DNA of 19,024 bases from Myxococcota bacterium (lineage in GTDB: Bacteria > Myxococcota_C > UBA6777). Position 1 is the stretch's first letter. Each line of letters begins with the position of its first letter. Of the stretch, positions 170 to 18,331 are shown one piece after another. The notes under the pieces are model-generated. The model did no database searches and was not told where the DNA came from. It was given only the letters and a program-made list of their open reading frames with translations. The stretch is taken from the NCBI GenBank assembly GCA_023150835.1, contig JAKLKB010000133.1, positions 1 through 19,024 of the forward strand, in the 5' to 3' direction. The translations under genes and the position numbers were made by a program.

Positions 170-1243
170 TCAAGGATGGATCTCGACACGCTGAAGCCCT
201 CGTGTATCGGCTTCGATGGAGATCGAGACATGGGGAAGAAAGGACGAGATGATATCTGCGTTGGTGAGAAGATGGCCGGTGCGCTGGGGAGCGAGAAAGA
301 CCGAAGGGCCTTGTGCAAGAGCCAACGGAAGCAGGAGTTGATCGGCCATCCACTCATCGACGACGGCCTCGCTGCGTAAGAATTGAGCGGCGAGGGCAGC
401 GGCTTCGGCTCCGACTTGTTCGGCTGGACGGCCTTTCCACCCCCACGCTGTAAAGCCCGCACGCAGGGGGCCAAAATGACAGATCACATGGCAGACCGCC
501 CCAACACAAAGCGCATCAGGCTCGCTACACAAGAAAGAGGCGCGAAATCCGAGTTGATGAAGAAGCTCTTGGGCTGCATTTCCCATGCGTTGGGCCACAG
601 GTGCAAGTCCGCTGCTAGGGCGTTTTTGTTCGGGAGGTTGCCCAAACAAGGCGAGGATCGAGATCCGATCGAGATCAGGGCGCTGTTCGTATCGGAAAGG
701 TTGAGGGCGTTGTTTGGATGGGATGGCGGCTTCGATCAGGCCGCCACCACGGGGATAAAAGCCATGTCGATGTAAACGCAAACTCACATCCATTCCGCAC
801 ACCCGTATCATCGGAGCCCATACATTGTTGAGGTAGTCGAATGTTGGGGCTTTATCGACATGGGTTCCTCCCGCTAGGCGAAGAGTCCCACCTTGATCGG
901 ACCACGCCATCGGGTAATACAGCGCATGCAGCAGCAAGGATGTTGCGCCCGCTGTGCCGATATCGATGGAGTGTTCTCCAAAAGGCAGATGGTTTGGGCT
1001 GTAGTGGATGCGTGAAGCGCCGACTTCTGCGCCCTCAACGTGGCCCCCACACAGTCGCGCACTGGCTTCGACGGCAGTCAAGTGTTGTGGGCGCAATCCC
1101 GTTTTTTGTCGACGTGCGCGGATGCGATCCATCGAAAAGGGGATACCAAGGATGTTGGACAGCGAAAGCGAAGAACGCAGCATCTGGCCGCCGCCTTCAC
1201 CAAGCGACCCGTCGATCTCGACGGATGTGTGGGTCGATTCCAT
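170..1243 (-). CDS. rtcA: RNA 3'-terminal phosphate cyclase RtcA
   Basis: This 357-residue protein is close to the usual RtcA length (about 340). The family enzyme converts an RNA 3'-phosphate to a 2',3'-cyclic phosphate using ATP and an adenylated histidine intermediate. Visible family signatures, in order, are GEGGGQMLRSSLSLS (residues 15-29), GGTHVDKAPTFDYL in the middle, FYPRGGG, DQLLLPLAL, and TGHLLTN near the C-terminus, which carries the expected nucleophile His324. The ATG at 1243 is preceded by a GGAGAG ribosome site at good spacing. The gene lies 134 bp downstream of the first protease-TPR gene in the same direction, with a hairpin repeat in the gap, so cotranscription is uncertain. 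No rtcB ligase or RtcR regulator is present in the window, so it is an orphan here. Confidence 0.95.
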   Translation of the reverse strand: MESTHTSVEIDGSLGEGGGQMLRSSLSLSNILGIPFSMDRIRARRQKTGLRPQHLTAVEASARLCGGHVEGAEVGASRIHYSPNHLPFGEHSIDIGTAGATSLLLHALYYPMAWSDQGGTLRLAGGTHVDKAPTFDYLNNVWAPMIRVCGMDVSLRLHRHGFYPRGGGLIEAAIPSKQRPQPFRYEQRPDLDRISILALFGQPPEQKRPSSGLAPVAQRMGNAAQELLHQLGFRASFLCSEPDALCVGAVCHVICHFGPLRAGFTAWGWKGRPAEQVGAEAAALAAQFLRSEAVVDEWMADQLLLPLALAQGPSVFLAPQRTGHLLTNADIISSFLPHVSISIEADTRGLQRVEIHP

Positions 1244-1377: not shown

Positions 1378-4300
1378 CTAGGGTAGCACAAGTCGCCATT
1401 GACCTTGGCGTCGTCGAAAGAACCAAGCGCCTGCATCGGTTTTGTTGGTCAGGATCAGTTGGTAGCGGATCTGTACGACGCGACCAAGAGAGGGATGGTG
1501 AACCCAAAAGATCCGAGGCGGATCATATAGCGAAGCGTCGTGTCCTTGCTTTTGCAAGATAAAAGAAAAGAGTCGAAACCAAACCAAGGACTTAGCGGGG
1601 GGAACGCTTGGATCAAGGATGTGGCTCCATGCAGAGAAATCGCCGTTGCGAAGGGCTGCAAAGGCGAGGCGGGCATTGCGTGCGACGTGTCTGCGGATGG
1701 CGAAGCTGCGGACGCGTTGGAGGATGATCAGTTTGTTGGGGCGCTTGGGGCGGCGATATACGCGTTTAGGAGGGGGTGGTTGCGTGGGGGGGACGGGAGG
1801 ATGGGTCGGGGTGGGTTGGCCCTGAGGGGGCTGATCTTGGGGTGGATTGGGTTGAGGGGGCGTAGGAACTTGGGGGGCGGCGAGGGAGCGCAGACCTTTT
1901 TGCATACGAGCGATGGAGAGCTTGCGCATGATAGAAGTGACGATCCCAGAGATGCCGCGTTGGACGAGGAAGTTGTAGGTTTCTTGGTCGAGAACGGAGG
2001 GAGTAAGGACGAAGAGTTTGAGCAGGAAGCGATCGTTGGGGAAAGGTCGGGAGAGGGCGAGGATCCTCCATTCTTGGAGGGAGATCGGTCGTGGGGAGAC
2101 GTTGAAGTAGAGGCGTATTTGGTTGCGGGTGGCTTCGTCTTGGGCTTGTTCGAGCAGGATCTGGCCGACGCCGAAGGTGATACCTGGCAGGCCGCTTTGG
2201 TAGGCGACCTTGGCGAGGCGTTTTCCGGCGGTGAGAGCGAGGGGATTGCGAGAGAAAGAGCCGAGCAAAGCTCCCCATGTTCCGAGCAGAAAGAGGATCT
2301 TGATTTTTTGGAGTTGTCCCGTTGCACCACGATCGACGCATTGTCCGCCAACGTAGATGGTATAAGCATCAGGGGTCGAGCCCAAGATCGCGTGACTGTC
2401 TAAGAATTGGATGTAGGCGTTCCAACCTTTGTCGAGATCGTTGGTGGCGTGATAGGCTTGGAGGAGGATGCTGTGGAGGAAGGGGTGGTAAGGGTATTTT
2501 TCTTTGAGAGATTCGAGCGAAGGGACGGCGGTTTCGTATTGTTTGAGCATGATCTGGCCGTGATATTCGGAGATCTTGAGGTCTACTTCGTTGGGTGCGA
2601 TGCGTTGGGCTTTGCGGTAGGCTTCGATGCTTTCGAAGTATCGGCCAGCAGAGAAAAGGATCTGCCCACGCGTGCTGAGTCCGAAGGAGAGGATGCCGCG
2701 AGTCAGTTGGTGTGCTTTGTTGGCGTCTTCGAGGGCTTGTGGGTATTTGGATTGGGCCGCGAGCAGGCGGGCGCGCAAGAGATAAGGCGAGTAATAACCG
2801 GGCTGTTGTTGGATCATCTTGTTGATCAGGTAGGTGGCGGTGGAGAAGTCACGTTTTTCGAGAGAGATGCTGGCGAGCAGCTCAAGGAGGGTGGAGTGGT
2901 CGGGGTCTTGGCGTAGGCCGTTGTCTGCCCATTGACGGGCTTTTTGAAGCATCTTGTCTTGTTGGTCATCTTGGAACTTGTAGGATTCGCCGAGATAGAA
3001 CTGGGCGAGTCCTGCGTAGGCAGCGGCGAGGCGAGGATCTTGTTGGGCAGCGCGTTGGAAGGCTCGGATGGCGGGTTCGTGATAGCCTTGTGCATACCAA
3101 TAGGTGGCGAGATCGTACCATTGGAAGGCAGAGAGGGGGCTTTTGGGTACGGCGAGGTAATCGGGGAAGTGTTGCCAGACAAGATCGATGGGGATGGCGT
3201 AGTAGTAGCCGAGTCCCATTGCAGGGCGGGCGAGGGATTTGTCGAAGATGCCGACCCATGTGTTGATGCCGACGGCAGCACCTGTTTCGAGGTGATAGAG
3301 GGGGCCACCGCTGTTTCCGCCGGCGACTTTTGCGGTGTGTTGGATCTCGTTGACGGTGCGGTTGGTGAGGCGGATCAGACGGGAGATCGTGCCAGAAGTG
3401 GCGGTGATATCCTCAGTGCCCATGTATCCGATGCTATGGCCTTCGGTGGGGAAGCCCATGGCGACGATGTTGTCGCCGAGGGTGGTGGTTTGGATGGAGG
3501 CGAGCGGGGTGTAGGGATAGGGTCCGTCGCCTTCGAGTTTGAGCAGGGCGATATCGATGTGTTGGCGTTGGAAGGTGCGAGAGCGGCCTGTTTTGAAGTC
3601 GTGTTTTTGGGTGGCTTCGCTGAGGGAGCCTTGTCGATAGGCGTGGATCAAGCGGGCTTTGGTGGCGCTTCGCCCTGTACTACGGTCCCAATTGACCATA
3701 AAGCGTTCGAAGAAGCGGCCTATTCGGCTGTTGAAGATGACGTGGTGGTTGGTAATGACGTAGCCATCAGGGGTGACGACAAAGCCGCTGCCGCTGCCTC
3801 CAATAAGCCTTCCTTCGGCGTCTTTGCCGTAGGCGGAGATGCTGACGGTGGCGGGGATCTTGGATTGGATGATCTGTTGTTTGGTTTGGGGGGTGGCGAG
3901 TCTTGGAGCGCGATAAGCCTGTAGCGGCGGCTGTATTTGAAACGATTGGAGGATGGTTTTTGCTTGCGCATCAAAAGCGTCGAAGGTTTCGGGCTGTGAA
4001 AAGACACGGAGGATCATAAAGGCCTTGCGACCGTGGCTCCAGAAGAAGAAGAAGCGGCTTTTGTGTGGGTGCGCGCTGGTGCGATCTTGTCCTCGGATCA
4101 AGGTGGTGGCGGTTTGGAGGGCGTGAAGTTTTTCGGTGCGCAGAGGTGTTTCTTGTCGGAGTTGATCTTCGGAGGCCAAGAGGTTGGAGATGGAAACTTG
4201 GGCGAGTTCGGCCTCGTTGCGCATACGGATCTCAGGGCTGCTTTGGGAGATATACTCGGTAAAGAGACAGATGCCTTGTTTGAGTTGGCCGGTATAGAGG

Positions 4301-5193
4301 GTGTTTTCAGGCGTAAAGCACACGACAGGACGGATATCGGTGGGAGATATCTCTTCGAGGACGTGCCAGCCCGAGGGGACGGCGAATTGAAAGAAGCCGG
4401 AGGCTGAGCGATAGATGCCATCGGAAGGGGGATAGGCGCGTTTGGCTTCGCGCTGTTGGAGGGCGCGTTCGCGATCGCTGAGAGGTCTTTGAGAGGTGGG
4501 CAGAGGTGGATTGGTCGAAGGCATCGGTGGGGCGGGCGTTTGTGAAGGGAGGATTGGTTGTGAGGGATCGATCGGAGCAGGGGAGGGCTGGGCGGGCGTG
4601 GGGGAGGGTTGGTCAGGGTTCGGTGGGGCGGGCGTTTGTGAAGGGAGGATGGTGGGGGAAGGATCCACAGGGGTAGGGGGGGAAAGTGATTTTTGTTTGA
4701 GCTTGTGGATGAGTTGGAGTGTGGGGATGGAGAGTCCGTCGCGGTTGAGTTCGAGGAGTTGTAGAGCGGAGAAGTCGGAATGGAGGACACCGCGAAGGGT
4801 GAGTTGTTGTTGAATCCACGCTTCGTTTTTGCGTTGGGCGAGCCACGATTTCAAGAGGGCGAAAGAGACGGGCTTTGGTGCAGAAACGGCAGGCGCACCG
4901 ATGCCCATCAGGCGAAGGAGGCGAGGGCTGAGGCCCTTTTGTCGGAGTTGGAGGGTTTGGGTGGGAGTGAGGCCAAACTTGCCCTTCATGCCGGACTGTT
5001 CGATGTGTTGGAGCAATTGTTGTTCGGTATAACCGATGTCGACGAGCAGAAGGATATCTTGGACGGTGAGTTTCTTTTGCGCCGCTGTATCCGATGGAAG
5101 AAACAGCAGTGTGTGAAGAGCGATAGCGAGCACAAAGGCCAGAGAACGAAAGAAAACAAACAGTAGAGAGGGTGGTGGCGTGCGTTGAAGCAT
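1378..5193 (-). CDS. Secreted trypsin-like serine protease with TPR region (paralog A)
   Basis: This 1271-residue protein begins with a hydrophobic signal sequence (about residues 9-38, ending TAAQKK), so it is probably exported. Two tandem copies of a helical module (LTVQDILLLV..., about 41-96 and 107-167) are followed by a Pro/Ser/Thr-rich linker (about 170-245). A beta-rich segment with a PSGW motif (about 255-420) has a PsbP-like look. The S1C/DegP-type protease domain (about 440-690) carries TNHHV with His484, HIDIAL with Asp547 and GGNSGGPLY with Ser628, a full triad. TPR-like repeats follow (about 690-960), then a proline-rich stretch (about 1100-1150) and an unrecognised C-terminal domain. 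GGAG seven bases before the ATG supports the start. It is a tandem paralog of the gene at 5367-9011. Substrate and localisation (periplasm or surface) are unknown. Confidence 0.9.
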   Translation of the reverse strand: MLQRTPPPSLLFVFFRSLAFVLAIALHTLLFLPSDTAAQKKLTVQDILLLVDIGYTEQQLLQHIEQSGMKGKFGLTPTQTLQLRQKGLSPRLLRLMGIGAPAVSAPKPVSFALLKSWLAQRKNEAWIQQQLTLRGVLHSDFSALQLLELNRDGLSIPTLQLIHKLKQKSLSPPTPVDPSPTILPSQTPAPPNPDQPSPTPAQPSPAPIDPSQPILPSQTPAPPMPSTNPPLPTSQRPLSDRERALQQREAKRAYPPSDGIYRSASGFFQFAVPSGWHVLEEISPTDIRPVVCFTPENTLYTGQLKQGICLFTEYISQSSPEIRMRNEAELAQVSISNLLASEDQLRQETPLRTEKLHALQTATTLIRGQDRTSAHPHKSRFFFFWSHGRKAFMILRVFSQPETFDAFDAQAKTILQSFQIQPPLQAYRAPRLATPQTKQQIIQSKIPATVSISAYGKDAEGRLIGGSGSGFVVTPDGYVITNHHVIFNSRIGRFFERFMVNWDRSTGRSATKARLIHAYRQGSLSEATQKHDFKTGRSRTFQRQHIDIALLKLEGDGPYPYTPLASIQTTTLGDNIVAMGFPTEGHSIGYMGTEDITATSGTISRLIRLTNRTVNEIQHTAKVAGGNSGGPLYHLETGAAVGINTWVGIFDKSLARPAMGLGYYYAIPIDLVWQHFPDYLAVPKSPLSAFQWYDLATYWYAQGYHEPAIRAFQRAAQQDPRLAAAYAGLAQFYLGESYKFQDDQQDKMLQKARQWADNGLRQDPDHSTLLELLASISLEKRDFSTATYLINKMIQQQPGYYSPYLLRARLLAAQSKYPQALEDANKAHQLTRGILSFGLSTRGQILFSAGRYFESIEAYRKAQRIAPNEVDLKISEYHGQIMLKQYETAVPSLESLKEKYPYHPFLHSILLQAYHATNDLDKGWNAYIQFLDSHAILGSTPDAYTIYVGGQCVDRGATGQLQKIKILFLLGTWGALLGSFSRNPLALTAGKRLAKVAYQSGLPGITFGVGQILLEQAQDEATRNQIRLYFNVSPRPISLQEWRILALSRPFPNDRFLLKLFVLTPSVLDQETYNFLVQRGISGIVTSIMRKLSIARMQKGLRSLAAPQVPTPPQPNPPQDQPPQGQPTPTHPPVPPTQPPPPKRVYRRPKRPNKLIILQRVRSFAIRRHVARNARLAFAALRNGDFSAWSHILDPSVPPAKSLVWFRLFSFILQKQGHDASLYDPPRIFWVHHPSLGRVVQIRYQLILTNKTDAGAWFFRRRQGQWRLVLP
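4525..4650. repeat. 30-bp direct repeat inside the proline-rich linker of paralog A
   Basis: An identical 30-base segment beginning CGGTGGGGCGGGCG occurs at 4525-4554 and 4621-4650. It encodes the duplicated peptide ILPSQTPAPP. The 96-base offset is a multiple of three, so linker length can change without a frameshift. Confidence 0.85.
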
Positions 5194-5290
5194 CGGCGAT
5201 CTCCGAAAAGAGGGGAAGGGATCGAGGCGAAGGGGACGACTGGGGGCGGCTTAGGCGAAATTCGCCTGTTTTGTGATCGTGAAGAGGTCG

Positions 5291-5366
5291 GGGCATTCCC
5301 CTGTAGGTGCCCTATAATAGGGCACCTACGCACTTTTCTTCGTTCACGCATCACTTGGATATCGTA
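5291..5366 (-). repeat. Dispersed palindromic element, copy 2, with perfect 27-base hairpin
   Basis: Read on the minus strand, the copy starts with TACGATATCCAAGTGATG (head 5357-5366), directly next to the stop codon of the second protease gene (5367-5369). A perfect inverted repeat at 5303-5329 follows: two 13-base arms, GTAGGTGCCCTAT and its complement, around a single A. It lies between the two protease genes and could end or attenuate transcription from the upstream gene, although no T-run follows the stem on the minus strand. The rest of the 173-base gap contains a small palindrome, AGGCGAAATTCGCCT, around 5254-5268. Confidence 0.75.
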
Positions 5367-8300
5367 TTAAAAGGAGTACCAGCGGCTTTGGTAGAGGCAA
5401 AACTGCCAGTAGTAGTGTTGGATCGGTTTGCCTTCTCCGATGCGGGCAGGGAACCAAAATCGTGCAACACGTCCATACTTGGGGTCGTTGGCCCATGTGA
5501 TGACGTAAGGGTTGGGGATGCTGTAAACAAAAGCTCCGTTGCGGTAGCCGTTGTGGAGGAGTTGAAAGATCTTGGCGATCTGGGCGCGGTCGGTGAGGCG
5601 GGGGTCGTACATGGCATTCCAGATATCGTAATCACCGCTTTGGAGTGCGCGAAAGAGCATGCCTGAGTTGTTGGTGATCTGGGCGCGGATGCTAGGCGAT
5701 TGGATGGGGGTTCCGAAGCGAGGGTCTTGTTGGATTGGCTGGTTGGGTTGTTGGGGCTGGTTGGGTTGTTGGGGCTGGTGGGGGGGTTGGTGGGGGGGTT
5801 GTTGAGCCGTGGCGGGAACAGCGATGGGGCGGACACCTTTGGCGAGGCGTGCGCTTGCGATCTTGATGAAGATGGCGAGGCTCTGGCCGGAGAGTCCGTT
5901 GCGTTGAAGAAGAGTGAGGGTGTTTTGATCGATCACGGAGGGGGTGAGGATGAGCAGTTTGAGCAGAAAGCGGTCGCTCATGACGGGTCGAGAAAGCCCG
6001 AGTATCCGCCATTCTTGGAGCGAGATCGGTTGGGAAGGGAAGCGCTGAAGAAGGTTTGCGATGGTTTGTTGATCTTTTTCGGTTTTGACCTGTTCTTGAA
6101 GGATACGAAGGATCCCATAAGCGACGCCGGGCATATTGTTTTTGCGTGCAAGGACAGCGAGTTTGGCGGCAGCAGCGATGCCATAAGGACTGCGAGAAAA
6201 AGATCCAACGATCTCACCCCATGTACCGAACAAGAAAAGGGATTTGTATGTTTCGTTCGCGACTGAGGCGCGTTCGATACAGGTTCCGACGGTAAAGATG
6301 GTAAACGGATCACGCGTGACGTTGCGGATCTGGGTGCTTTTGAAGTAATTCATGTAGGTTGCAAAGCATTTGTTGATCTCGTTTTGCTGTTGATAAGTGA
6401 TGACAAGGAGACTTTGTAGTTCTGGGTCATAGGGGTGTTGTTCAAGGAGTTTTTCCATTTGAGGAACACCCACATCAAATTGTTTGAGCAGGATCTGGCC
6501 GAAGAGTTCGTAGAGTTGGAATCGGAGGTTTTTGGGGGCGATGCGTTGGGCTTTGCGGTAGGCTTCGATGCCTTCGTAGAATCGGCCAGAGGCGTAAAGG
6601 ATCTGTCCTCGCAGAGAATGTCCGTAGGGGATAAAGCCTTGACCGAGGCGATGGACTTGTTGTGCGTCTTGGAGGGCTTCGGTGTATTTTTTCTGGGATT
6701 TGTGGAGTGTGCTGCGAAGAAAGAAAGGGGTCCAGTCCCCGGGTTGTTGTTGGATCATCTTGTTGAGGATGTAGTGTGCGGTGGAAGCGTCTTGTTTTTC
6801 GATGGCAACGCGGGCAAGGAGTGTCATGAGGGGATAATTGTCGGGATCGATTTGGAGGCCACGATCGGCCCATTGACGGGCTTTTTGGAGTAGTTTGTCT
6901 TGTTGATCGTCTTGAAAGCGGCTAGAGCGGAGGAGATAAAGCTGGGCGATACCGGCGTAGGCGGAGGCATAGTTTGGATCTTTTTGTTGTGCGCGTTGGA
7001 AAGCGCGCATGGCGGGTTCTTCGTATCCTTTGGAAAACCAGAGCGAGCCGAGTTCGAACCATTGGGCGGCAGAGAGGTTTTGTTGGGGTACGGCGAGGTA
7101 ATCGGGGAAGTATTTCCAGACGAGGTCGATGGGGATGGCGTAGTAGTAGCCGAGTCCCATGCCGGGGCGGGCGAGGGATTTGTCGAAGATGCCTCCCCAC
7201 GTATTGATGCCGACGACCGCGTTGGTCTCGCGATGATAGAGGGGACCACCGCTGTTTCCGCCGGCGATCTTGGCGGTGTGTTGGATCTCGTTGACGGTGC
7301 GATCGGGGAGTCGGATTAGGCGGGATATCGCGCCGGAAGTGGCGGTGATATCTTCGGTGCCCATGGATTCGATGCTACGGCCTTCGGTGGGGAAGCCCAT
7401 GGCCACGATGTTGTCGCCGAGGGTGGCGGTTTGGATGGAGGCGAGCGGAGTATAGGGATAGGGTCCATCGCCTTCGAGTTTGAGCAGAGCGATATCGACG
7501 TGTTGGCGTTGGAAGGTGCGAGAACGGCCTGTTTTGAAGTCGTGTTGTTGGGTAGCTTGTCGGAGGGAGTCTTGGTGGTAGGCGTGAAGCAAGCGGGCTT
7601 TGACGGATTGTCGGTCGGTGCCGCGATCCCAGTTGACACGGTAGTGTTGGATGAACTGGCCGCTTTTTCTGTCAAAGACAACGTGGTGGTTGGTGATGAC
7701 GTAGCCATCGGGAGAGACGACAAATCCGCTACCTGCGGCGACGTAGACGATCTTGCCCTCTTTGTTGCGAAAGCCGAGGCTGATACTGACGGTGGTGTGG
7801 AGCTTGGACTGGATGATTTGTTGGCGGGTTGCAGCGTTTTCAAGTCGGGGCGCGCTGTATTGAAGGAGTGGATCGAGGAGTTTGAACGAAGCGAGGAAGG
7901 CGTTGGCTTGTTTGGAGAAGGCATCAAACTGTGCGGGCGTTGCGTAGATTTGGATGTAGAAGAGGGTTTGTTTGTGGCGTAAGAAGAGGTAGCGAGTGCG
8001 GAGTACGTGTTGGTGAGCGCGTTCTTGGCCTTCGAAGGTGGCGGTCCATGCGGGGCGTTGTGCGAGGGTGGTTTGTTGGAGGGGGGAGAGCTGTTTGACT
8101 TGATCTTCGCGAGCGAGGAAGCGTTGTGTACCGAGTTGTGCGAGTTCTTTGAGGGTACGATCAGCGAGATCGTTGTCGTTGTGGGAGAGATATTCGAGGG
8201 TGAAAGTGACGCCTTGTTGGAGTGCGGCAGGCTGGGGATTTTTTTCGGGGCTGAAATGGACGGTGGGAGCGAGGGCGTCGGGCAGGACTTCTTCGTAGAG

Positions 8301-9011
8301 ATACCACGACGTTGGGGGCTGGATGGAGTAGAGGCGGGTGAGGTTGATGTAGGGGGTTTGGGGCGCGGGGATGGGCTGCGCGGTGCGAGAACGCAAGAGT
8401 TGTTCACGTTCGCTGAGAGGGCGGACGGTTGGGGCTGTGGGGAGGACGGGAAGGACGGGCAGAGAAGGATCGGAGGGAGGGAGTTGTGGGGTGGGTAGGG
8501 GAGTGGGTGATTTTTGTTTGAGTTTGTGGATGAGTTGAAGGGTGGGGATGGAGAGTCCGTCGCGGTTGAGTTCGAGGAGTTGGAGCGCGGAGAAGTCGGA
8601 GGGAAGGATACCGCGAAGGGTGAGCTGTTGTTGAATCCATGCTTCATCTTTGCGTTGGGCGAGCCACGATTTTAAGAGGGCGAAAGAGACGGGCTTTGGT
8701 GCAGAAACGGCAGGCGCGCCGATGCCCATCAGGCGAAGGAGGCGAGGGCTGAGGCCCTTTTGTCGGAGTTGGAGGGCTTGGGCGGGAGTGAGGCCAAACT
8801 TGCCCTTCATGCCGGACTGTTCGATGTGTTGGATTAGCTGTTCTTCGGTATAACCGACGTCGACGAGCAGGAGGATATCTTGGACGGTAAGTTTCTTTTG
8901 CGCCCTTGCATCGGGGGGAATAGAAAGGAGGCAGCCGAGAAATACGCTCAAGAGCAGGGTCAGGCAGCAGAGCCTTGCGAAAAAGCGGTGGGTACGTTGC
9001 GTTGGAGGCAT
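5367..9011 (-). CDS. Secreted trypsin-like serine protease with TPR region (paralog B)
   Basis: This 1214-residue paralog has the same domain order as the gene at 1378-5193. A signal sequence (about 10-36, ending ARAQKK) precedes two helical modules nearly identical to those of paralog A, a shorter proline linker (about 167-200) and a diverged beta-rich domain (about 220-380). The protease domain (about 397-643) has TNHHV His443, HVDIAL Asp506 and GGNSGGPLY Ser587. The 63- and 81-residue triad spacings equal those of paralog A. TPR-like repeats, a Pro/Gln-rich stretch with PQQPNQ repeats (about 1064-1103) and a C-terminal domain follow. The frame is open to 9230, but the start at 9011 is chosen because GAGGAGAAGG lies just upstream and a signal peptide begins there. 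A sigma70-like promoter lies at 9102-9130. The function is inferred to be an envelope protease or processing factor. Confidence 0.9.
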   Translation of the reverse strand: MPPTQRTHRFFARLCCLTLLLSVFLGCLLSIPPDARAQKKLTVQDILLLVDVGYTEEQLIQHIEQSGMKGKFGLTPAQALQLRQKGLSPRLLRLMGIGAPAVSAPKPVSFALLKSWLAQRKDEAWIQQQLTLRGILPSDFSALQLLELNRDGLSIPTLQLIHKLKQKSPTPLPTPQLPPSDPSLPVLPVLPTAPTVRPLSEREQLLRSRTAQPIPAPQTPYINLTRLYSIQPPTSWYLYEEVLPDALAPTVHFSPEKNPQPAALQQGVTFTLEYLSHNDNDLADRTLKELAQLGTQRFLAREDQVKQLSPLQQTTLAQRPAWTATFEGQERAHQHVLRTRYLFLRHKQTLFYIQIYATPAQFDAFSKQANAFLASFKLLDPLLQYSAPRLENAATRQQIIQSKLHTTVSISLGFRNKEGKIVYVAAGSGFVVSPDGYVITNHHVVFDRKSGQFIQHYRVNWDRGTDRQSVKARLLHAYHQDSLRQATQQHDFKTGRSRTFQRQHVDIALLKLEGDGPYPYTPLASIQTATLGDNIVAMGFPTEGRSIESMGTEDITATSGAISRLIRLPDRTVNEIQHTAKIAGGNSGGPLYHRETNAVVGINTWGGIFDKSLARPGMGLGYYYAIPIDLVWKYFPDYLAVPQQNLSAAQWFELGSLWFSKGYEEPAMRAFQRAQQKDPNYASAYAGIAQLYLLRSSRFQDDQQDKLLQKARQWADRGLQIDPDNYPLMTLLARVAIEKQDASTAHYILNKMIQQQPGDWTPFFLRSTLHKSQKKYTEALQDAQQVHRLGQGFIPYGHSLRGQILYASGRFYEGIEAYRKAQRIAPKNLRFQLYELFGQILLKQFDVGVPQMEKLLEQHPYDPELQSLLVITYQQQNEINKCFATYMNYFKSTQIRNVTRDPFTIFTVGTCIERASVANETYKSLFLFGTWGEIVGSFSRSPYGIAAAAKLAVLARKNNMPGVAYGILRILQEQVKTEKDQQTIANLLQRFPSQPISLQEWRILGLSRPVMSDRFLLKLLILTPSVIDQNTLTLLQRNGLSGQSLAIFIKIASARLAKGVRPIAVPATAQQPPHQPPHQPQQPNQPQQPNQPIQQDPRFGTPIQSPSIRAQITNNSGMLFRALQSGDYDIWNAMYDPRLTDRAQIAKIFQLLHNGYRNGAFVYSIPNPYVITWANDPKYGRVARFWFPARIGEGKPIQHYYWQFCLYQSRWYSF
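5739..5774. repeat. 18-bp tandem repeat in the Pro/Gln-rich linker of paralog B
   Basis: Two exact 18-base units beginning CTGGTTGGGTTG (5739-5756 and 5757-5774) encode the PQQPNQ peptides on the minus strand. They run into two 7-G tracts just beyond (about 5780-5800), so the plus strand carries six G-tracts in about 60 bases. Confidence 0.8.
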
Positions 9012-9130: not shown

Positions 9131-9324
9131 GAGGCGAGCAGGGTAAGCAGCAAAGGTCGGTGAATGGGGGTTGCAAGCATTTTTTTTTCTGCCAGTATGA
9201 CGAGGATCGCCGAAGGAAAAGCAAGCGCAAGGGCGATCGATCGAGAGAAGAGGGGTGCTGAAGGATCGCGTTGGAATTGTTGGGGTGTGTGGTTTTTGTG
9301 GATGGAAAGCACGGTAGGTTGTTG

Positions 9325-9924
9325 ATGGTAAAAGAAGAAAAGCTGATCGCGGGGTTGCGTGGAGGCGAAGATTGGGCGTATCGGGAGGTTCTCCAACACT
9401 ACGGGCCTTTGCTGATGGGGTACGCGAAGCGCCTTGTGGGAGATCGCGATGAAGCAGAAGAAGTGGTGCAAGAGACGGTGGTTGCGATCTTACAACACAT
9501 CGAGCGTTTTGAGGGGCGTTGCAGCATCCGCAGTTGGTTGTTTCGGATCGTGCATCACAAAGCGATCGATCATCTGAGGCGGACTGCGCGTTTTGTAAAG
9601 CCTCCCGAAGAAGATCCTTACGCGGAGGCGTTTGATCGGGGAGGGCATTGGAAAGAGACGCCTGCGGCGTGGGGTCACGATCCCGAAGGTCAAGCAGGCG
9701 CACGTCAGATGTTGCACAAGATCCGAGCGGTGATCGATCAATTGCCAAATAATTACAAAGAGATGATTCTGTTGCGCGAGATTTATCAGATGGATACACA
9801 AGAGATCTGTAATGTTTTGGGGATCACATCCGTCCATGCGCGAGTGCTGCTTCACCGCGCTCGACAAGCATTATATAAGCTCTTGGAAGAAACATATCGG
9901 GGTTCCATAGAGTCGATGGATTGA
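9325..9924 (+). CDS. ECF-family RNA polymerase sigma factor
   Basis: This 199-residue protein has the standard two-domain ECF sigma layout. The sigma2 region covers about residues 5-90 and includes DEAEEVVQETVVAIL and the RSWLFRIVHHKAIDHLRR core-binding and -10-binding segment. A linker follows, then sigma4 (about 130-192) with LPNNYKEMILLREIY and the helix-turn-helix TQEICNVLGITSVHARVLLHRAR. The frame opens at a TTG at 9271, but the ATG at 9325 gives the usual family N-terminus (VKEEKLIAGLRGGE), so it is preferred; its ribosome site is weak. The next gene encodes a zinc anti-sigma-like protein 63 bases downstream, the usual arrangement. The gene is divergent from the protease-TPR pair, which makes those genes candidate targets; this is not shown by sequence. 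Confidence 0.92.
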   Translation: MVKEEKLIAGLRGGEDWAYREVLQHYGPLLMGYAKRLVGDRDEAEEVVQETVVAILQHIERFEGRCSIRSWLFRIVHHKAIDHLRRTARFVKPPEEDPYAEAFDRGGHWKETPAAWGHDPEGQAGARQMLHKIRAVIDQLPNNYKEMILLREIYQMDTQEICNVLGITSVHARVLLHRARQALYKLLEETYRGSIESMD

Positions 9925-9987: not shown

Positions 9988-10296
9988 ATGGATGTGATGC
10001 GTTGTGACGCGATGGTGCGGCGGATCGATCGGATCGTCGACGGTGAGGCGTCTTGGAGTGAAAGACTGGGATTTTACTTTCACATGGCGATATGTTGGAA
10101 GTGTCGGCGTTATCTGCGGCAGTTTCGACAGATGCGGTTGTTGGTGGGGCAGATCCAAGAAGAGATGTTGCCTGAGGACTTTGCTCAAGTGATGGGTCGG
10201 GCGCTTGCTTTGGGTGGGGATCGGTCGGAGCAGGGGCTTGAGGTGGATGATGAAGGTGTGTGGATCGGTCGCCCTGTGTGGATCACGAAGCGTTGA
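9988..10296 (+). CDS. Small zinc-binding anti-sigma-like protein
   Basis: This 102-residue protein carries an N-terminal Cys6 followed by His32-x3-Cys36-x2-Cys39, the pattern of zinc anti-sigma (ZAS) domains. Their usual role is to hold an ECF sigma factor inactive until a redox or envelope signal releases it. No membrane segment is visible, so it would be cytosolic, like redox-sensing RsrA-type proteins. GAGG in GAGGAAAAAG precedes the ATG at good distance. It lies 63 bases after the ECF sigma gene in the same direction, probably one transcript. The acidic C-terminal half has no recognisable domain. The sequence covering its last codons (10288-10303) is repeated downstream at 10429-10444. 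Confidence 0.75.
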   Translation: MDVMRCDAMVRRIDRIVDGEASWSERLGFYFHMAICWKCRRYLRQFRQMRLLVGQIQEEMLPEDFAQVMGRALALGGDRSEQGLEVDDEGVWIGRPVWITKR

Positions 10297-10480: not shown

Positions 10481-11092
10481 TTAGGGGAGGACGCGGTATC
10501 CGGCATCGCGGATGATCTGGGCGAGTTGGGAGGGGTTGGTGAGTTTGGAGTGGAAAGAGACGATGGCTTGGGGAGGATCGAGGGTGACTTGGGTATGGAG
10601 GACGCCTTTGGTTTTTTGGAGGGCTTCGGTGATGCGTGCGACGCAACCGCCACAACTCATGCCAGCGATCTTGAGGGTGACTTTTTGGGTGGATGTTGGT
10701 TGAGGTGGAGTGTGCGGTTTGGGTGGAGTTTTTTCTGTTTGGATCACGCCCTTGTATCCGGCTTTTTCGATGGCTTGGAGCATCTGCTGTGGGGTGACTT
10801 GTTTGGGTGTGTACACGACGATCGCACGCTGTGGTTCGAGGGTGACATCTGCTTTTTGAACGCCCGGGAGGGATTGCAGGGCACGCGTGATGCTTTCGAC
10901 ACAGCCTCCGCAGTGTAGCCCCGAGAGGTCGAGGGTGATCTGTTGGGTGTGCGTGGGGGGAGTGTGTGGTTTGGGGGAAGCGATGGAAAGAGAGGAAAGG
11001 CCGGATGGAAGGGCCGCAGCGATCAGGAGTAGGGCCAACAAGACAGGTGCGAATGCGGCGAGGCGGATGCTGGGTGGGGTGGATGGCTTCAT
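10481..11092 (-). CDS. Membrane-anchored protein with two heavy-metal-associated domains
   Basis: This 203-residue protein has one N-terminal hydrophobic segment (about residues 11-32), either an anchor or a signal sequence. Two HMA (MerP/CopZ-type) domains follow, joined by a Pro/Thr-rich linker. Domain 1 has GLHCGGC with Cys61 and Cys64; domain 2 has GMSCGGC with Cys147 and Cys150. Both retain the family's Cys-x2-Cys metal site and the AGY near their ends. The likely role is binding and passing a soft metal (copper or mercury) outside the cytoplasm. No metal ATPase or mer/cop gene is visible nearby. The frame extends to 11170, but the ATG at 11092 has GGAG nine bases upstream and starts just before the hydrophobic segment. 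Confidence 0.85.
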   Translation of the reverse strand: MKPSTPPSIRLAAFAPVLLALLLIAAALPSGLSSLSIASPKPHTPPTHTQQITLDLSGLHCGGCVESITRALQSLPGVQKADVTLEPQRAIVVYTPKQVTPQQMLQAIEKAGYKGVIQTEKTPPKPHTPPQPTSTQKVTLKIAGMSCGGCVARITEALQKTKGVLHTQVTLDPPQAIVSFHSKLTNPSQLAQIIRDAGYRVLP

Positions 11093-11139
11093 CAAAAAAT
11101 TCTCCGTATGGGTGAAGGATGTGCCGACGAGTTGGTTTT

Positions 11140-11290
11140 GTTTGGTGGGGCTTTGCCCCACGCCCCACAAGGGAGCGAAGCCCCCTTGACCCCGTATTGA
11201 CGGGACGAACAGAGCTTTTTTTAACCAACGACTTTGTTGCTAGGGCATCTGCGAACGCGGGGTTTTTTCTCTTCCACGTCGTTGCTCTTT
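11140..11290 (+). repeat. ~150-bp dispersed two-hairpin repeat, copy 1
   Basis: The element opens with the hairpin GTGGGGC-TTT-GCCCCAC (11145-11161), followed by a hairpin whose stem is CAAGGG/CCCTTG (11168-11188), then TTGACCCCG. A T-rich run near 11216-11222 and GCGGGGTTTTTTCTC near 11260-11270 follow. The same order occurs on the minus strand at 13660-13822. Boundaries are approximate. The copy starts about 50 bases upstream of the HMA start codon. Confidence 0.8.
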
Positions 11291-17762: not shown

Positions 17763-18146
17763 ATGTTGTCATCAGAGGCGTATCTTCAGGCTCGTCAGAA
17801 AGCGCGTTATCACGTCCAAGTTCAGATCGAGCGGGTGGGGTTTCCTCCTCGGATGCCGGGAGAGGCCGAGGTGGGGGGGAAAGTCGTGCAGGTGTTTCGT
17901 GCGGATGGCTCGGAGTTGCGTTGTGGTGATCCGATCCGTTTTCGGTTGAGTGTTGCGGCCTACAACGAAGCGATTCCGCCCGAAGATGGGGTGTGGTGGT
18001 TGCCTGCGGATGCGATCTATGAGGGGGCCTGTATTGAGGCTTTTTTGAATGGCGAAGCGCCCGATTGTGCGGTCGCTTTGTGGCAAGTGACGATCTTGGA
18101 GGGGGCTCCTTCGCCACCTTGGATGAGCGAGGATGTATTGGACTGA
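17763..18146 (+). CDS. Hypothetical protein of 127 residues
   Basis: The protein has a helical start (LSSEAYLQARQKARYHVQVQIE) and then a beta-rich body (GGKVVQVFRADGSELRCGDPIRFRLSV...WWLPADAIYEG). Three cysteines are present, with no signal peptide or membrane segment, and no family is recognised. The frame begins at a GTG at 17694; the ATG at 17763 is preferred because GGGAGA lies about seven bases upstream. The stop TGA is part of the first unit of the 9-bp tandem array that follows. In this phase nearly every array unit carries another TGA. Confidence 0.65.
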   Translation: MLSSEAYLQARQKARYHVQVQIERVGFPPRMPGEAEVGGKVVQVFRADGSELRCGDPIRFRLSVAAYNEAIPPEDGVWWLPADAIYEGACIEAFLNGEAPDCAVALWQVTILEGAPSPPWMSEDVLD

Positions 18147-18331
18147 TCGGATTGATCGGATTGATCGGATTGAACCGACTGATCGGATTGAACCGACTGA
18201 TCGGACTGATCGGACTGATCGGACTGATCGGACTGATCGGATTGAACGGATTGAACGGGCTGATCGGACTGATCGGACTGATCGGATTGATCGGACTGAT
18301 CGGATTGATCGGACTGATCGGACTGATCGGT
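18143..18331. repeat. 9-bp tandem repeat array rich in GATC
   Basis: About 21 units of the 9-mer CTGATCGGA (or TTGATCGGA) run without interruption. Four units have the variant core GAACCG or GAACGG instead of GATCGG. The array fills almost all of the gap between the convergent 127-residue gene and the GNAT gene. Because the unit is a multiple of three, each phase reads as a repeated tripeptide (TDR, LIG, or SDQ on the minus strand) or repeated stops. There are no spacers, so it is a minisatellite and not a CRISPR. Confidence 0.97.

What the first reader, a model, noticed from the sequence alone, without database searches (positions are those of the whole stretch)
1378..9011. Tandem giant secreted protease-TPR paralogs with mosaic conservation
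Two adjacent genes share a seven-part domain order and identical triad spacing (63 and 81 residues). Conservation is strongly blockwise. The N-terminal modules (about 4830-5010 against 8650-8830) and the protease core are nearly identical even at silent sites, while the beta-rich domain and C-terminal domain have diverged far. This suggests a tandem duplication followed by local gene conversion, or selection for one shared recognition module with two different sensor or target domains. The full combination was not recognised as a named system.
Basis: partly seen in the sequence, partly recalled or inferred. Interest (0 to 1): 0.72.

Follow-up and report, generated by a model that had tools for sequence, protein, structure and literature searches.

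The report
Twin secreted proteases patched by recombination
Two neighbouring genes for large exported proteases arose from one ancestral gene; parts of them are kept almost identical by DNA copying between the genes, while their presumed sensing parts have drifted far apart, which is a clear example of a known evolutionary process in an otherwise undescribed protease family.

Summary
Genes A (1378-5193, -) and B (5367-9011, -) are tandem paralogs with one domain order and identical triad spacing (63/81). Silent divergence is blockwise: dS 0.03-0.4 in the N-terminal module, about 0.2-0.6 in the Asp/Ser half of the protease, and 0.8 to saturation in most other windows. A congeneric genome (G001) carries both genes, cut by contig ends, consistent with the same order. 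Ortholog silent distances are flat along the genes, so silent-site constraint is excluded. In A residues 81-120 the paralogs within one genome (dS 0.06, dN 0) are closer than the orthologs (0.25-0.57), which indicates gene conversion after the species split. The protease tract is older. Three other genomes of the family have one copy each, one with the same neighbours, so the duplication is genus-specific. A is the fast, derived copy; both are under purifying selection. The 'beta-rich' domain is PsbP/Mog1-like. The N-module is two four-helix units, the first related to an unnamed motif of envelope-type proteins elsewhere. The architecture was found only in this five-genome phylum. Best reading: an exported HtrA-type protease without PDZ, duplicated, one copy re-specialised. 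Function is inferred.

The parts
1378..5193 (-). Gene A, 1271 aa exported multidomain protease; fast-evolving (derived) copy
   Evidence: ORF; Trypsin_2 E 2e-22 and TPR; tree branch 0.84 against 0.42 for B
5367..9011 (-). Gene B, 1214 aa, tandem paralog upstream of A; retains more of the ancestral sequence
   Evidence: ORF; Trypsin_2 E 5.5e-24; PsbP-like domain 36% and CTD 33% identical to single-copy G003, against 22% and 23% for A
4690..5076 (-). A: N-module, two four-helix units (aa 40-98 and 107-168)
   Evidence: helices in model m92439267cb3a (low confidence, built on B); unit 1 against the outside motif hhalign 97.7%; unit 2 against unit 1 79%
8511..8897 (-). B: N-module, two four-helix units
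   Evidence: same as for A; 93% aa identity to A
3919..4407 (-).
   Evidence: aligned to the B domain modelled; 30% identity to B
7863..8348 (-). B: PsbP/Mog1-like domain
   Evidence: Foldseek E 4.8e-5 to CyanoP 2xb3; VIA-align Z 10.8 (3hlz, rmsd 3.4, 132 aligned) and 9.5 (2xb3, rmsd 4.8, 138 aligned)
3169..3888 (-). A: trypsin-like (S1C-type) protease domain, triad H484 D547 S628
   Evidence: Pfam Trypsin_2; triad
7110..7829 (-). B: trypsin-like protease domain, triad H443 D506 S587
   Evidence: Pfam Trypsin_2; triad
2404..3141 (-). A: TPR array
   Evidence: Pfam TPR_2, TPR_1, TPR_19
6345..7082 (-). B: TPR array
   Evidence: Pfam TPR_2, TPR_19
1381..1713 (-). A: C-terminal domain after a Pro-rich linker, helices then four strands (NTF2-like guess)
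   Evidence: aligned to the B domain modelled; fold assignment is inference from the order of elements
5370..5705 (-). B: C-terminal domain after a Pro/Gln-rich linker
   Evidence: secondary structure of model mb3cdf586c327; 25% identity to A
4723..5091 (-). A: homogenised tract 1 (aa 35-157), containing the most recent tract aa 81-120 (4834-4953)
   Evidence: silent-codon segment test, 0 of 20000 shuffles; A=B against B ortholog 10:0 site patterns in aa 81-120
8544..8912 (-). B: partner of tract 1, containing 8655-8774
3418..3672 (-). A: homogenised tract 2 (aa 508-592, Asp side of the protease core)
   Evidence: segment test p 0.001
7359..7613 (-). B: partner of tract 2
9271..9924 (+). ECF-type sigma factor, divergent from gene B; also next to the single-copy gene in G003
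   Evidence: Pfam Sigma70_r2 1.8e-20 and Sigma70_r4_2 1.5e-11; G003 sigma-like ORF at L054 7843-8484
9988..10296 (+). small protein with Hx3Cx2C, probable zinc-finger anti-sigma factor; counterpart in G003
   Evidence: motif HMAICWKC here and HLMMCGKC in G003; no Pfam hit at 1e-3
170..1243 (-). RNA 3'-phosphate cyclase gene downstream of A; same neighbour in G001 and G003
   Evidence: Pfam RTC 2.4e-66; G001 and G003 homologous ORFs

Best explanation
One ancestral gene for an exported, multidomain S1C-like serine protease was tandemly duplicated in the ancestor of this genus. Copy B kept more of the ancestral sequence. Copy A evolved faster, above all in its PsbP/Mog1-like and C-terminal domains, and then settled under purifying selection. 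The N-terminal helical module and the Asp/Ser part of the protease were overwritten between the copies by short homologous recombination (gene conversion) more than once, most recently in aa 81-120 in this species. Inferred working model: both proteins act in the cell envelope or outside it; the conserved N-module docks both to the same partner or surface; the TPR array binds protein clients; the PsbP-like and C-terminal domains, the parts that diverged, set which ligand or client switches the protease on. Shown: duplication, mosaic divergence, conversion, intact triad, domain content, selection on both copies. Inferred: export (signal-peptide-like N-termini read by eye), docking, sensing, clients. 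The confidence given is for the duplication and conversion part; for the functional model it is about 0.4.
For: Blockwise dS with permutation support. Ortholog pS is flat: A-A' 0.18-0.23 in the PsbP, core, TPR and C-terminal domains and B-B' 0.17-0.24 in every block tested, including the homogenised ones. Paralogs are closer than orthologs in aa 81-120: 2 differences in 120 nt against 12 for the B orthologs; site patterns A=B 10, B=B' 0. Of the four-sequence informative sites, the first four all join copies within a genome, the longest such run having p 0.0001, against 353 ortholog-type sites over the region. Single copies in three other genomes, and A+B monophyletic at 100/100 in unconverted regions. 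Ortholog dN/dS for A is 0.16 in the PsbP-like domain and 0.19 in the C-terminal domain. Domain assignments.
Against: The aa 81-120 window was chosen after looking. The second genome is a draft whose contigs break inside the pair, so A' lacks aa 1-101 and B' its C-terminal half. The apparent separate conversion in that genome (aa 121-168, dS 0.06) is not significant by site patterns (5:3 and 7:3). Both genomes are fragmented drafts and no reads were seen. Nothing tests function: no ligand, partner, substrate or expression data. Both structure models are low confidence (mean pLDDT 52 and 59).
Confidence: 0.8

Rival explanations
1. Silent-site constraint rather than conversion: codon bias, RNA structure or an overlapping signal keeps the blocks alike.
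For: The same blocks are also the best conserved at protein level.
Against: Orthologs differ at silent sites in these blocks as much as elsewhere: A-A' dS 0.20-0.57 in the N-module and 0.27 in the core, B-B' 0.20-0.28.
Confidence: 0.04
2. Assembly artefact: two similar genes were merged into mosaics by the assembler.
For: The genomes are fragmented (239 and 520 contigs); in G001 both copies end at contig breaks inside the pair, and 33 bases at one end are shared exactly.
Against: The longest exact A/B match is 58 bases, shorter than ordinary reads. The same block pattern appears in both genomes, and the older tracts carry species-specific differences.
Confidence: 0.06
3. A single early replacement of N-module and core (or a partial second duplication) before the species split, with no later exchange.
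For: The protease tract fits this: the copies still sort by gene (A0+A1 90/85, B0+B1 82/85) and paralog distance is about equal to ortholog distance.
Against: aa 81-120 sorts by genome, not by gene: 10 against 0 sites.
Confidence: 0.15
4. The proteins are not active proteases but protease-fold scaffolds.
For: Large accessory domains; His lobe and PsbP-like domain diverge quickly between the paralogs.
Against: The triad and flanking motifs (NHHV, DIALLK, GGNSGGP) are invariant in all seven sequences from five genomes.
Confidence: 0.1

Closest known systems
HtrA/DegP/DegQ family (S1C peptidases; TIGR02037)
   Same: Signal-peptide-like N-terminus, trypsin-like domain with the H-D-S motifs; the best NCBIfam matches are this family (E 4e-20 and 1e-20).
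   Different: Score 72-74 against a cut-off of 416; no PDZ domain matched; H-D spacing of 63 residues; carries N-module, PsbP-like, TPR and C-terminal domains instead.
PsbP/Mog1/DUF1795 fold (CyanoP, MTC28, LpqN, EagT6)
   Same: Predicted fold of the beta-rich domain.
   Different: No sequence match in Pfam or PDB profiles; here fused to a protease.
Gene conversion between duplicated bacterial genes (tuf genes of Salmonella, PMC5485169; PE/PPE genes of M. tuberculosis, PMC13061034)
   Same: Non-reciprocal exchange keeps parts of paralogs alike.
   Different: In tuf, conversion keeps similar duplicates alike; here it is confined to two parts of an otherwise strongly diverged pair.
Unnamed helical motif near the N-terminus of envelope-type proteins (DxxxLxxAGxSxxxIxxxIxxSG-F-LTxxxIxxLxxxGxSxxxI)
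   Same: Homologous to N-module unit 1 (hhalign 97.7%); seen with Gly-zipper, PEGA and Trp/Tyr-rich partners.
   Different: Single there; followed by a diverged second unit here.

Membership tests
S1C / HtrA-type serine protease | trypsin-like domain | tested here: met
   Pfam Trypsin_2 E 2e-22 and 5.5e-24, above cut-off
S1C / HtrA-type serine protease | H-D-S triad in order with GNSGGP | tested here: met
   invariant in all seven sequences
S1C / HtrA-type serine protease | C-terminal PDZ domain(s), as in DegP/DegQ/DegS | tested here: not met
   no PDZ match at E up to 1 in Pfam for five proteins
S1C / HtrA-type serine protease | score above the NCBIfam Do-family cut-off | tested here: not met
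   72-74 bits against 416
S1C / HtrA-type serine protease | proteolytic activity and trimer assembly | not testable with these tools
   needs purified protein
PsbP/Mog1-like fold | structural similarity over the whole domain | tested here: met
   Foldseek E 4.8e-5; VIA Z 9.5-10.8 over 132-138 residues, from a low-confidence model
PsbP/Mog1-like fold | sequence-profile membership (Pfam) | tested here: not met
   no such family at E up to 5
TPR protein | TPR repeats above Pfam cut-off | tested here: met
   TPR_2, TPR_1, TPR_19
NTF2-like C-terminal domain | fold | tested here: inconclusive
   helices then four strands in the model; the fold searches were filled by TPR matches
gene conversion between tandem paralogs | paralogs within a genome closer than orthologs in a bounded tract | tested here: met
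   aa 81-120, 10:0 site patterns; run test p 0.0001
gene conversion between tandem paralogs | independent tracts in a second lineage | tested here: inconclusive
   aa 121-168 in G001: dS 0.06 but site patterns 5:3 and 7:3

The most novel reading that the evidence does not exclude
The N-module is a modular envelope docking domain of a widespread but unnamed family, and the genus runs a two-protease system in which selection preserves conversion of the docking module and catalytic half while the sensing domains diverge, so that two different signals feed one shared site.
Probability: 0.25. Interest if true: 0.6.

Novelty: new variant of a known kind. Interest (0 to 1): 0.42.

Why it matters
It is a clean natural case in which conversion acts on parts of a protein and leaves others free, with orthologs at hand to separate conversion from constraint. 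It also points to an unnamed helical motif near the N-terminus of envelope-type proteins outside the phylum, and to a protease architecture present in all five genomes held for a poorly sampled phylum. None of this overturns known biology.

Tried and rejected
Silent-site constraint as the cause was rejected on flat ortholog dS. A shared PQQNLSA stretch (start of the TPR junction, about A aa 680-686) between the two copies of G001 was first read as a conversion; it lies within the last 33 bases of a contig, shared exactly with the other copy, and was set aside. Homologs of the pair elsewhere in the window's genome: none at E 1e-5. PDB sequence search with the N-module and beta-domain profiles gave nothing useful. 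Literature searches for a PsbP + protease + TPR protein and for the KLAP109 genome found no paper. An ECF -35 GGAAC-type promoter was looked for upstream of A and B and not found. Regulation of the protease by the neighbouring sigma factor was considered; only conserved neighbourhood supports it. The wide searches outside the phylum scored only a few candidates per genome, so absence there is not proof. Whole-genome download was not available.

Full report
Observation. Two tandem genes lie on the minus strand: A (1378-5193, 1271 aa) and, upstream of it, B (5367-9011, 1214 aa). Both have the order signal-peptide-like N-terminus, N-module, Pro-rich linker, beta-rich domain, trypsin-like protease, TPR array, helical region with Pro-rich linker, and C-terminal domain. 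The triad spacing is 63 and 81 residues in both. Over 40-codon windows the paralog dS runs from 0.03 to saturation, with a whole-gene value of 0.83. Two segments of excess silent identity stand out against shuffles: A aa 35-157 (0 of 20000) and aa 508-592 (p 0.001). The protease is itself mosaic: the His half is diverged, the Asp/Ser half is not.

Relatives. The window lies in a 7.56 Mb draft genome in 239 contigs. Only five genomes of its phylum are held, all of one family, and all five carry the gene. One relative of the same genus (G001; its contig C210 is CAUJFU010000210.1, titled 'Myxococcota bacterium isolate KLAP109') has B up to about aa 650 on one contig and A from aa 102 on another, consistent with the same tandem order. 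G002, G003 and G004 have one copy each; G003 has it in the same place, between a divergent sigma-factor gene and the RNA cyclase gene. In unconverted regions A and B group together at 100/100 apart from the single copies, so the duplication belongs to this genus's lineage. A has the longer branch (0.84 against 0.42), and its PsbP-like and C-terminal domains are less like G003's than B's are (22 against 36%, 23 against 33%). A is therefore the derived copy.

Conversion. Ortholog silent distances are flat along the genes: pS 0.18-0.23 for A-A' in the PsbP-like, core, TPR and C-terminal domains, and 0.17-0.24 for B-B' in all blocks tested. Selection on silent sites therefore cannot explain the blocks. 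In aa 81-120 the two paralogs of the window differ at 2 of 120 bases, while the B orthologs differ at 12; sites joining A with B against B' number 10, sites joining B with B' number 0. Among 367 informative four-sequence sites, 353 group by gene; the sites that group by genome include a run of four at the start of the region shared by all four sequences (aa 103-119; p 0.0001). This is a conversion after the species split. The protease tract has paralog distance about equal to ortholog distance but still sorts by gene, so it was last homogenised near or before the split. A second tract in G001 (aa 121-168, dS 0.06) is suggestive only. Assembly error is unlikely, because the longest exact A/B match is 58 bases, but it is not excluded without reads.

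Selection. Between orthologs dN/dS is 0.16 for A's PsbP-like domain and 0.19 for its C-terminal domain, 0.13 for B's PsbP-like domain and 0.03 for B's protease core. Both copies are maintained.

Domains. The beta-rich domain matches the PsbP/Mog1 fold: Foldseek E 4.8e-5 to CyanoP, VIA-align Z 10.8 and 9.5 to BT_1490 and CyanoP, although the model's mean pLDDT is 52. The N-module shows eight helices as two four-helix units. Unit 1 matches a motif found in envelope-type proteins of four genomes outside the phylum, near the N-terminus in most (hhalign 97.7%), and also an N-terminal region of a HEAT-repeat protein in G004. Unit 2 is probably a diverged repeat (79%). The C-terminal domain is helices followed by four strands; NTF2-like is a guess.

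Function. Best inference: exported proteases whose shared N-module docks both to one place, with TPRs for clients and diverged sensing domains. The adjacent sigma-factor gene and a small Hx3Cx2C protein, both also beside the G003 copy, may control expression; that is untested.

Comparison with the known. It works like an HtrA-type protease, but it lacks PDZ domains and scores far below the family cut-off, so it is not filed as one. Partial gene conversion between bacterial paralogs is well known (PMC5485169, PMC13061034). What is new is the architecture and its restriction, so far, to this phylum.

Noticed in passing
5256-5367: A 112-base imperfect palindromic repeat between B and A, ends like ATACGAAATCCG...CGGATATCGTAT. 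Scored matches: 47 in this genome and 38 in G001, none in G002-G004; some copies lie head to tail about 115 bases apart. No Rfam match.
   Followed up: partly
N-module unit 1 (4900-5076 and 8721-8897); L046, L047, L048, L049: An unnamed motif of about 55 residues in envelope-type proteins outside the phylum, with Gly-zipper, PEGA or Trp/Tyr-rich partners; no Pfam or NCBIfam model for it.
   Followed up: partly
L053 (G004:C1): A second protein with one N-module unit, followed by HEAT repeats, in a related genome.
   Followed up: partly
10484-11170: Protein with two heavy-metal-associated domains behind a hydrophobic N-terminus, possibly exported.
   Followed up: no
18140-18330: Tandem array of a 9-base unit (GGACTGATC), 21 copies, next to an acetyltransferase gene.
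   Followed up: no
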